DNA of 64,000 nucleotides from Bacteroidales bacterium. Lineage in GTDB: Bacteria; Bacteroidota; Bacteroidia; Bacteroidales; UBA932. The stretch spans positions 85,604-149,603 of the forward strand of contig JAFXQA010000012.1 of assembly GCA_017527415.1 (NCBI GenBank), read 5' to 3'. The position numbers and the translations under genes are program-made. The notes under the pieces are model-generated. The model saw only the letters and a program-made list of their open reading frames with translations. It had not been told where the DNA came from and searched no databases. The first letter of the stretch is position 1, and the number at the start of each line of letters is the position of its first letter. Positions 29,820-54,700 of the stretch are shown here, in pieces.

Positions 29820-29920
29820 TACAGATCCATCAGCTGGTCCTGGACAGCTTCGTCCTTGCGGCCGACCACGATGTCCTGGTAGTCGGCGAGGCCGGTACCG
29901 GCGGGGATCAGATGTCCGCA
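29820..29920 (-). repeat. Displaced 3' end of rpoC (left flank repeat)
   Basis: 101 bp aligned without gaps to 51783-51883; 92 positions match. On the minus strand it encodes the last 33 residues of RpoC plus a TAG stop, with one amino-acid change (Ser to Ala) and otherwise silent differences. Upstream of it the sequence bears no resemblance to rpoC. Confidence 0.85.
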
Positions 29921-29947
29921 GCAACGGAATAATCAAGCGCGACACTA

Positions 29948-51756: not shown

Positions 51757-51781
51757 TTGTGTAAACCACTGAAAATCAATT

Positions 51782-54700
51782 TTACAGATCCATCAGCTGA
51801 TCCTGTACCGATTCGTCCTTGCGGCCGACCACGATATCCTGGTAATCGGCAAGGCCGGTACCGGCGGGAATCAGATGGCCGCAGATGACGTTCTCCTTCA
51901 GGCCCTCGAGGTGGTCGACGCGGCCGCGGATGGCGGCTTCGCTGAGCACCTTCGTGGTTTCCTGGAAGGAAGCTGCGGAAATGAAACTGTTGGTACGCAG
52001 AGCTGCGCGGGTGATACCCTGAAGCATCAGGCGTGCCGTCGCCGGTTCTGCCGGACGGGCTGTGAGGCCCTTACGGCCCTGACGTTCGAGGGAAGCGTTC
52101 TCGCTGCGCATATCGCGTGCGCTCACGAGGTCGCCCATCACATAGCGCTCACTGTCACCGGGTTCGAGCACGAGGAACTTGCCGTAGATGGCGTCGTTGA
52201 CGTCCATGAACAGGCTCTTGTCCACGAGTTCGTCCTGGAGGAACTCAGTGTCGCCGGGGTTGGTGATTTCCACCTTGCGCATCATCTGGCGTACGATGAT
52301 CTCGAAGTGCTTGTCGTTAATCTTCACACCCTGCAGACGATACACGGCCTGAACTTCATTCACAATGTATTCCTGGGCTTTTACGGGGCCGAGGATGTTG
52401 AGAATGTCGCTCGGGGACACACCGCCGTCAGACAGCGGAGTGCCGGCCTTCACGTAGTCGTTCTCCTGCACGAGGATCTGCTTGGTCATAGGCACCAGGT
52501 AGTGCTTTTCGATGCCGCTGCGGTTCTTGACCGTAATCTCGCGGTTACCCCTCTTCACCTTGCCCATGATGACCTCGCCGTTGATCTCGGAAAGGATGGC
52601 AGGGTTGGAAGGATTGCGGGCTTCGAAGAGCTCGGTGACTCGCGGCAGACCGCCGGTGATATCGGATGCTTTGCCGATTGCACGGGGGATCTTGATGATG
52701 ATGTCGCCCACCTTCACCTGTGTGCCGTTCTCGACGGTGACGTGTGCGCCCACAGGCAGGTTGTACTGCCTCAGGGTGCTTCCGTCTTCACCGAGGATGA
52801 CGAGGGTCGGGTTCTTGGTCTTGTCCTTCGATTCGATGATCACCTTGTCGGTGCTCATGCTGAATTCGTCGGCATTGTCCTTGCGGAAGGTTACGCCTTC
52901 GATCATGTTCTCGAAAGCGACCTTACCCGCAGTTTCGACCAGGGTGACGGCATTGTAAGGATCCCATTCGCAGATGCGGTCGCCCTTCTTCACCTTGTCG
53001 CCTTCTTTCTTGAAGAGGATGGCTCCGTAAGGGATATCGTACTGTGAATAAGCGTATCCGGTATTCTCGTCAACGATGCGGAGTTCGGTCATTCGGCTGA
53101 CCACGACGGTTTCCGCGCCTTCCTCACCGATCCTTTCGATGGTACGGAGCTCCTCGAACTGGAGCTTGCCGTTGTACTTGGAATCGATGCTGGAATCGAC
53201 CACGGAACCACCGGCGGTACCACCGACGTGGAAGGTACGCAGGGTCAGCTGGGTACCAGGCTCACCGATGGACTGTGCTGCGATGACGCCGACGACCTCG
53301 CCCTTCTCAACCATGCGGCTGGTGGCCAGGTTGCGGCCGTAGCACTTCGCGCACACGCCGTGACGGCTCTCGCAGGTCAGAACACTGCGGATCTCCACCT
53401 GCTCGATGGGCAGGGAGTCGATGAGCTCGGCCTGCGCCTCGCGGATTTCCTCGCCTGCATGCAGGATGAGTTCTCCGGTGAGAGGATTGAAGATGTCGTG
53501 GACGGTGGTGCGTCCGAGGATGCGTTCGCCGAGGCTCTCGACCACCTCATCCTTATTCTTGATGGCGGTGGCGATGAGGCCGCGAAGCGTGCCGCAATCC
53601 TCTTCGGTGATGATCACGTCGTGCGATACGTCTACAAGACGCCTTGTCAGGTAACCTGCGTCAGCGGTCTTGAGGGCGGTATCGGCCAGACCCTTACGTG
53701 CACCGTGGGTGGAGATGAAGTATTCGAGCACCGTCATTCCTTCCTTCAGGTTGGATATGATAGGGTTCTCGATAATCTCAGCGCCGGCAGCGCCGCTCTT
53801 CTGGGGCTTGGCCATAAGGCCGCGCATGCCGCAGAGCTGCTTGATCTGCTGGGTTGAACCACGGGCACCGGAATCAAGCATCATGAACACGGGGTTGAAT
53901 CCCTGCTGGTCGGCGGAAATCTGCTTTGTGACTATGCCGGTCAGCTTGTTGTCGATGCCAGTCCAGAGGTCGATGACCTTGTTGTAGCGCTCGTTGTTGG
54001 TGATGAAGCCCATCGCGTAGTTGTTCTTGATATCGCCGACCTGCTTGTATCCGGAGTCGATCAGTTCGTCCTTCTCCTTGGGGATGATGACATCGCCGAG
54101 GTTGAAGGAGATACCGGCGCGGAAAGCCTGGTCGTAACCGAGGTTCTTGATATCGTCGAGGAACTTCGCGGTGCGGGTTACACCGGTGTTCTTGATAACG
54201 AGTGTGATGATGTTGCGCAGTGCCTTCTTTCCGAGAATCTCGTTGACGTAGGGAACTTCGTCCGGAACGAACTGATTCACGATGATGCGGCCTGCGGAGG
54301 TCTTCACGATCTGGGTTCCCTTGGAAGGATCCTGCTTGTCGACAGGTATGCGGACATTGATTTCCGCATGCATCTCTATAACCTTTTCGTTATAGGCGAT
54401 GATGACTTCCTCGGGGCCGTAGAAAGTGAGGCCCTCTCCCTTTGCACCGGGACGGATCTTGGTGATGTAGTACAGACCTAGCACCATATCCTGGGAAGGA
54501 ACGGTGATAGGGGCTCCGTTGGCAGGGTTGAGGATGTTGTGGCTACCGAGCATGAGCAGCTGTGCCTCCATGATCGCGGCGTTGCCGAGAGGGAGGTGAA
54601 CTGCCATCTGGTCACCGTCGAAGTCCGCGTTGAAAGCGGTACATGCGAGAGGGTGCAGCTGGATTGCCTTGCCTTCGATCATCCTGGGCTGGAAAGCCTG

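What the first reader, a model, noticed from the sequence alone, without database searches (positions are those of the whole stretch)
29820..51883. A polysaccharide-utilisation island inserted at the 3' end of rpoC
Seen: the last 101 bp of rpoC occur twice in the same orientation, at 29820-29920 and 51783-51883, enclosing 21.9 kb of accessory genes; the left copy is an orphan next to xth, and sampled lines inside are AT-richer (43-58% G+C) than the core (60-63%). Known: integrating elements that target a gene's 3' end bring a replacement end and push the original to the far side, as with tRNA genes. Inference: ancestral order was xth facing rpoC, and the island entered there. An rpoC tail as a landing site for a PUL would be a new integration hot spot.
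Basis: partly seen in the sequence, partly recalled or inferred. Interest (0 to 1): 0.85.

Follow-up and report, generated by a model that had tools for sequence, protein, structure and literature searches.

The report
Glycan-use island beside rpoC
A 22-kb cluster of genes for digesting plant polysaccharide sits between two core genes of a rumen bacterium, carries a stray copy of the end of the RNA-polymerase gene rpoC at one edge, and seems to have come from a related bacterium by recombination in the shared flanking genes rather than with an enzyme of its own.

Summary
The last 101 bp of rpoC occur twice (92/101), enclosing a polysaccharide-utilisation locus (PUL) between xth and rpoC in a MAG of a Cryptobacteroides-named genus. 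Relatives G203, G045, G152 and G205 have the empty site, rpoC and xth 50-120 bp apart. The island is 99.95% identical to contig C110 of another bin (G306), with the same left junction, although 5' cysS there is only 76-86% identical. The window is mosaic: G203-like, then C110/G152-like from inside cysS (28160-28299), then G203-like again from inside the rpoC tail (51812-51850). So about 23.5 kb, junction included, probably entered by double homologous recombination. The duplication is older. Tails and terminators look reciprocally swapped at the two edges, as integration of a circle at the rpoC end would give; few sites support this. The orphan tail then looks foreign, not the displaced native end. 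No recombinase domain was found in the 13 island genes. No orphan tail was found in other sampled genomes, and PULs are not clearly enriched beside rpoC. No new hot spot is shown; the case is a good example of island transfer without mobility genes, with an unusual rpoC homology arm.

The parts
28160..28299 (.). left recombination zone inside cysS: sequence switches from G203-like to C110/G152-like
   Evidence: informative sites: 27401-28160 G203-like 90, C110-like 19, neither 14; 28300-29705 C110-like 265, G203-like 11, neither 8
28944..29705 (+). xth (Exo_endo_phos family), imported G152/C110-like version
   Evidence: at least 97% to G306:C110 and G152 in 150-bp steps
29706..29818 (.). two hairpins between xth and the orphan tail, found natively between xth and rpoC in G152 and G205
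   Evidence: 97.4% to G152, 93.8% to G205, otherwise only window and G306:C110 loci; hairpins plus tail matched as one stretch only in G000, G306, G152 and G205
29819..29921 (-). orphan rpoC 3' end (33 codons + stop), left copy of the direct repeat
29922..29947 (.). left junction between orphan tail and NAGLU gene
   Evidence: identical in G306:C110
29948..32194 (-). NAGLU-family alpha-N-acetylglucosaminidase-like glycosidase
   Evidence: Pfam NAGLU, NAGLU_N, NAGLU_C
32216..33247 (-). YhcG/DUF1016 PD-(D/E)XK nuclease-domain protein (PADLOC candidate PDC-S02)
33319..34422 (-). SGNH/GDSL esterase
   Evidence: Pfam GxDLY + Lipase_GDSL_3
34424..35815 (-). GH28 polygalacturonase-type enzyme
35822..37015 (-). 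GH88-family unsaturated glycuronyl hydrolase type
   Evidence: Pfam Glyco_hydro_88
36939..38780 (-). protein with FGE-sulfatase-type C-terminal domain
38781..40787 (-). 668-aa protein without Pfam match, paralogue of 48967-51054 (about 50% aa)
40800..42497 (-). SusD-like glycan-binding protein
42510..45815 (-). SusC-like TonB-dependent transporter
45824..46768 (-). FecR-type anti-sigma factor
46905..48914 (-). fimbrillin-like (Mfa_like_1) protein
48967..51054 (-). 695-aa protein without Pfam match, paralogue of 38781-40787
51068..51613 (-). ECF sigma factor
51697..51781 (-). rpoC terminator of G203/G199 type; right edge of the island at about 51697-51705
   Evidence: G203 68/82, G199 64/82; not found in the G152, G205 or G045 loci
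51782..56032 (-). intact rpoC; last 33 bp (51783-51815) G205-like, 51816-51884 G203-like; right recombination zone 51812-51850

Best explanation
A pectin/rhamnogalacturonan-type PUL island without a recognisable mobility gene reached the rpoC-xth gap in two steps. Step 1 (inferred): in an ancestor of the C110 lineage (xth and hairpins of G152/G205 type), a circular or circle-equivalent DNA carrying the island plus a foreign rpoC end and terminator (G203/G199 type) recombined once with the resident rpoC end, within its last 20-30 bp. This left resident tail + foreign terminator on the rpoC side, and foreign tail + resident hairpins on the xth side. rpoC stayed intact and the island gained 101 bp of rpoC homology at its far edge. 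Step 2 (sequence evidence strong): a chromosomal piece of about 23.5 kb, from the 3' part of cysS through xth, orphan tail and island into the last bases of rpoC, entered the G203-like chromosome of this window by ordinary double homologous recombination, with crossovers at 28160-28299 and 51812-51850, and replaced the empty site. The orphan tail has no demonstrated function; it could act as a homology arm for further excision and insertion at rpoC.
For: Empty site in G203, colinear apart from other indels and one inversion, and adjacent rpoC/xth in G045, G152 and G205. 12 substitutions to G306:C110 over 29508-51746, against 76-86% identity per 150 bp in 5' cysS. Informative sites switch sharply inside cysS: 90 G203-like vs 19 before 28160, 265 C110-like vs 11 after 28300. 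The functional rpoC tail switches from G205-type (33/33) to G203-type (69/69) at 51815/51816. Reciprocal mismatch: G203/G199-type terminator next to a G205-type tail end, and G152/G205-type hairpins next to a mostly G203/G199-type tail. Orphan vs G203: 9 of 9 differences synonymous, so it came recently from a live rpoC. No recombinase domain in the 13 island genes; gaps at most 168 bp. No match of the island in plasmid or phage records, none of the tail pattern in viral contigs.
Against: Step 1 rests on few sites. In the orphan, six sites fit the G203/G199 clade and two the G152/G205 clade; where G152 and G205 agree with each other the count is 4:2, one more site matches G205 alone, and others match no one. 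In the functional tail end three sites fit G152/G205. No sampled genome has the orphan's tail (best 91%). The right junction is seen only in this window: C110 leaves the shared sequence inside the terminator hairpin at 51746 for 141 bp of unmatched sequence at its contig end. C110 may be misbinned, since G306 holds two cysS. G203 is a distant stand-in for the recipient (83-91% over most of the left, 95.7% on the right). 28 differences to C110 at 28300-29507, then none until 31376, mean the exact donor was not sampled or further exchange occurred. No circle, read or excision product was observed.
Confidence: 0.55

Rival explanations
1. Homology-facilitated illegitimate recombination: linear donor DNA rpoC-terminator-PUL-NAGLU anchored by homology in rpoC, and its NAGLU end was joined at random 101 bp before the recipient's rpoC stop. 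The orphan would then be the recipient's own displaced end.
For: Needs no circle or recombinase; no repeat or motif was seen at the junction at 29921; two to three clade sites of the orphan do fit G152/G205; a close analogue is proposed for V. cholerae T6SS clusters (PMC5361080, passages read).
Against: Predicts that the orphan resembles the tail native to the adjacent hairpins and xth. Hairpins are 97% to G152, but the orphan tail differs from the G152 tail at 15 of 103 bp and from G205 at 11, and clade sites go 6:2 (strictly 4:2) the other way.
Confidence: 0.22
2. Site-specific integration by a tyrosine or serine recombinase at the rpoC 3' end, supplied in trans or since lost; the repeats are attL and attR.
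For: Topology (gene restored, partial copy at the far edge) and a 17-bp block at the stop-codon end shared by both copies fit; the inferred crossover lies near that block.
Against: No recombinase domain in the 13 island genes; no other orphan tail found among 400 genomes; no rpoC-tail pattern in viral contigs. The element-borne homology reaches about 70 bp or more to the gene-body side of the inferred crossover, which an att site does not need.
Confidence: 0.15
3. Assembly chimera: strain C110 (with the island, next to xth only) and a G203-like strain without it were joined in silico at conserved cysS and terminator/rpoC sequence.
For: Both switch points lie in conserved sequence; this is a 67%-complete MAG; C110 continues differently from 51747 on. 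Whether the two bins come from one sample is not known.
Against: The left junction is identical in two bins. C110 itself carries half of an rpoC terminator beside the ECF gene, which makes sense only if rpoC once followed. The window has a complete hairpin and intact rpoC, and the 33 bp before the switch equal G205 but differ from G203 at 4 sites and from the orphan at 4.
Confidence: 0.12

Closest known systems
[quoted passage not shown] 2017, PMC5635113; passages read)
   Same: accessory cargo between core genes, no recognizable mobile element, recombination breakpoints in both flanking core genes, empty site in relatives
   Different: here between species of a genus, on a PUL, with a partial copy of a flanking core gene at the far edge; turnover statistics for the site were not established
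Orphaned 3' ends left by homology-facilitated displacement in T6SS/Rhs loci (PMC5361080; passages read)
   Same: insertion beside a conserved anchor, old or foreign 3' sequence left downstream, whole arrays later spread by homologous recombination
   Different: cargo is a PUL, anchor is rpoC; the orphan looks more like donor than recipient sequence
Integrative elements that target the 3' end of a gene (recalled, general knowledge)
   Same: intact target gene plus a partial direct repeat at the far boundary; empty site in relatives
   Different: no integrase found, no recurrence at other rpoC tails, repeats only 91% identical
rpoC-adjacent plasticity regions in Photorhabdus/Xenorhabdus (PMC3091717; one table passage read)
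   Same: rpoC listed as a core locus beside variable regions or islands (RGP94, GI12, GI10)
   Different: other phylum; no duplicated tail mentioned in the passage read
Homologous PULs of the same genus (G283, G319, G034, G114, G165, G173, G272, G300)
   Same: much of the same gene set around SusC/SusD, SusC 69-79% identical
   Different: on the stretches fetched: no rpoC, no YhcG, and no NAGLU except a 29%-identical one in G272

Membership tests
Polysaccharide-utilisation locus | SusC/SusD pair | tested here: met
Polysaccharide-utilisation locus | co-directional glycoside hydrolases and sensor/regulator | tested here: met
   GH28, GH88, NAGLU, esterase; ECF sigma and FecR; all on the minus strand
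Polysaccharide-utilisation locus | growth on the predicted glycan | not testable with these tools
   none
[quoted passage not shown]
   G203, G045, G152, G205
[quoted passage not shown]
   cysS 28160-28299; rpoC tail 51812-51850
[quoted passage not shown]
   13 island genes scanned with Pfam, two without any match; gaps at most 168 bp; opposite-strand ORFs not scanned
Hot spot for PULs at rpoC | excess of PULs at this site in relatives | tested here: not met
   SusC within 5 kb in 7 of 73 and within 10 kb in 9 of 54 loci; roughly 7 of 54 expected at about 27 SusC candidates per 2.2 Mb, my reading of the table (range 4-75, unconfirmed candidates)
Site-specific integrative element | own integrase or recombinase | tested here: not met
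Site-specific integrative element | direct repeats with target gene restored | tested here: met
Site-specific integrative element | recurrent insertions at the same att site | tested here: not met
   orphan tail only with the same island, in 2 of 400 genomes; orphans too short for E 0.01 would be missed
Homology-facilitated illegitimate recombination product | orphan is the recipient's own displaced end | tested here: inconclusive
   6 sites against, 2 for (4:2 strictly); parents unsampled

The most novel reading that the evidence does not exclude
An rpoC-homing island: the PUL carries about 100 bp of a foreign rpoC 3' end as a built-in homology arm, so that it can excise as a circle by tail-by-tail recombination and re-enter the rpoC end of other Cryptobacteroides with host recombination enzymes. 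The result is an integrase-free mobile unit whose target is an essential, highly conserved gene.
Probability: 0.22. Interest if true: 0.75.

Novelty: new variant of a known kind. Interest (0 to 1): 0.45.

Why it matters
How PULs without integrases move between gut and rumen Bacteroidales is mostly inferred. Here donor-like and recipient-like chromosomes, the empty site and both crossover zones can be read from sequence: one PUL is 99.95% identical in two backgrounds whose 5' cysS differs by up to 24% per 150 bp. The swapped tail/terminator pairs suggest a circle that recombined at rpoC, which would make an essential core gene a docking site. That idea can be tested with junction PCR or long reads.

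Tried and rejected
Self-duplication of the window's own rpoC tail: rejected, the copies differ at about 10% with 8 of 10 changes synonymous. Orphan tails elsewhere: nine genomes of the 400 had two tail hits. Besides G000 and G306:C110, those in G022 (contig ends), G181 and G306:C130 look like rpoC split at contig breaks; G365, G195 and G389 hold two long rpoC reading frames in one bin; G226 and G280 second hits are weak. 59 of 400 had no tail match. PUL enrichment downstream of rpoC: tested on 83 loci (two, L071 and L166, from one genome, G006) and not found. Other cargo at the site: G008's 15.7-kb rpoC-xth gap holds metabolic genes (MetH, Cys/Met enzyme, GH31 and others) and one weak IS200-like match below Pfam's cut-off, not a PUL (only this gap annotated, 9 ORFs). 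80 xth loci from titled genome records, the best kept of 582 in a capped list: 7 have convergent rpoC within 1.1 kb (at least five of them genomes already seen), and none shows an orphan tail or the island as far as the stretches reach. A viral-contig scan for the tail peptide pattern found 0. G306's 141-bp contig end has no full match in the 19 other genomes searched; one 26-bp hit in G359. A further search of 189 genomes found no better tail match (the 29 listed had all been seen before). G306's best match to window 1-6000 is 79% over 0.9 kb, so its main genome is not this species.

Literature: searches listed nothing that I recognised as an rpoC-tail duplication around an island. The closest are PMC3091717 and PMC5635113. 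The single hit and the other listed papers were seen in listings only.

Full report
What is there. The window is G000:C2:85604-149603, from a 1.14-Mb, 67%-complete MAG. The genus is taken to be Cryptobacteroides: a congener contig, G012:C34 (26,913 bp), equals in length a record titled Candidatus Cryptobacteroides onthequi whose xth locus was fetched; this is an inference from one title. The last 101 bp of rpoC occur at 29820-29920 and 51783-51883, 92/101 identical. Between them lie, all on the minus strand, ECF sigma, a 695-aa protein, fimbrillin-like, FecR, SusC, SusD, a 668-aa protein, FGE-domain protein, GH88, GH28, SGNH esterase, YhcG/DUF1016 and NAGLU. The gene set suggests a pectin/rhamnogalacturonan-type PUL; the substrate is inferred from family names. 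The largest non-coding gap is 168 bp. None of the 13 genes has a recombinase domain; two have no Pfam match, and opposite-strand ORFs were not scanned.

Empty sites. rpoC and xth are convergent and about 50 bp apart in G045. In G152 and G205 they are separated by two hairpins (about 120 bp), in G203 by a terminator (about 100 bp). G203:C16 is colinear with the window on both sides without the island, apart from other indels and one inversion.

A second carrier. Contig C110 of bin G306 matches the window through the whole island (12 differences over 29508-51746) and has the same NAGLU-orphan tail-hairpins-xth junction. Its 3' cysS and xth are 95-100% identical to the window in 150-bp steps from 28301 on, but its 5' cysS is only 76-86%. 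G306 also has another cysS on C130 (77% aa), so C110 may belong to another organism than the rest of the bin. It still shows the island in a second background.

Mosaic. Where G306:C110 and G203 differ, the window follows G203 at 90 sites, C110 at 19 and neither at 14 from 27401 to 28160. It is mixed at 28160-28300 (4, 6, 1). It follows C110 at 265, G203 at 11 and neither at 8 from 28300 to 29705. On the other side 51697-61022, which includes rpoBC, is 95.7% to G203. Within the functional rpoC tail, 51783-51815 equals G205 (33/33; G203 29/33) and 51816-51884 equals G203 (69/69; G205 61/69). This is the signature of double homologous recombination importing about 23.5 kb.

Origin of the duplicate. 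The terminator beside rpoC (51701-51782) is of G203/G199 type (68/82, 64/82) and was not found in the G152 and G205 loci. The hairpins beside the orphan were found only in G152, G205 and C110. The tails are the other way round. The functional 3' end has the G152/G205 state at 51806, 51809 and 51811. The orphan has the G203/G199 state at 29848, 29887, 29891 and 29912, and also at 29900 and 29903 where G152 and G205 differ from it and from each other. It has the G152/G205 state at 29888 and 29915, and matches G205 alone at 29882. Such a reciprocal swap is what one crossover between a circle carrying foreign tail + terminator + island and the resident rpoC end would leave. Nine of nine orphan/G203 differences are synonymous, so the orphan was recently part of a working rpoC. 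The number of diagnostic sites is small and both parents are unsampled; this step is an inference.

Hot-spot test. Of 400 genomes of the genus, 341 have an rpoC-tail match; short orphan tails not explained by contig breaks occur only in G000 and G306:C110. In 83 loci downstream of rpoC, cysS/xth vary in distance (50 bp to over 18 kb, or not within the stretch) and orientation, so the region is rearranged often. SusC lies within 5 kb in 7 of 73 loci and within 10 kb in 9 of 54, 8 of the 9 on the rpoC strand. At about 27 SusC candidates per 2.2-Mb genome (my reading of the table; range 4-75, mostly unconfirmed) about 7 of 54 would be expected. Homologous PULs (SusC 69-79%) in other congeners have no rpoC on the fetched stretches. 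The island has no match in plasmid or phage records at megablast sensitivity.

Comparison with print. Double recombination at flanking core genes of MGE-free hotspots is the model of PMC5635113 (passages). Orphaned 3' ends after homology-anchored displacement are argued in PMC5361080 (passages). A table in PMC3091717 lists rpoC beside plasticity regions of Photorhabdus/Xenorhabdus (one passage). So neither rpoC-adjacent islands nor the transfer mode is new; the foreign rpoC arm and the reciprocal tail/terminator swap were not found described in the searches listed under Tried and rejected.

Verdict. Observation real; island real; arrival by flanking homologous recombination well supported; integrase-type element and new hot spot not supported; circle integration at the rpoC end favoured but unproven.

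Noticed in passing
window 14242-21124: About 6.9 kb absent from G203 begins exactly at the 3' end of tRNA-Arg (14167-14241); 13 bp of the tRNA end (14229-14241) recur at 20538-20550, about 0.6 kb before G203 homology resumes. Cargo: FecR, TonB receptor, DUF4249, DUF4886; no integrase among the four ORFs of this segment scanned with Pfam.
   Followed up: partly
window 10220-11617: A 1.4-kb segment with a PfkB-family gene is inverted in place relative to G203; no inverted repeat of 7 bp or more was found in the 40-45 bp compared at its ends.
   Followed up: partly
window 32216-33247: The YhcG/DUF1016 nuclease-domain protein matches PADLOC candidate defence family PDC-S02 and lies inside the PUL between NAGLU and the esterase; not found on the homologous PUL stretches compared.
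   Followed up: partly
window 38781-40787 and 48967-51054: Two paralogous proteins of 668 and 695 aa (about 50% aa identity) without Pfam match lie in the PUL; the 668-aa one has 71-75% relatives in the homologous PULs compared, the 695-aa one separate 63-66% relatives in G283 and G319. Possibly a new surface glycan-binding or enzyme family.
   Followed up: no
L135:1-141 (G306:C110 contig end): Shared sequence stops inside the rpoC terminator hairpin and continues into 141 bp containing another strong palindrome, with no full match in 19 other genomes.
   Followed up: partly
loci L066-L084, L146-L205: The cysS-xth block changes orientation, splits and shifts downstream of rpoC across the genus, a frequent local rearrangement.
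   Followed up: partly
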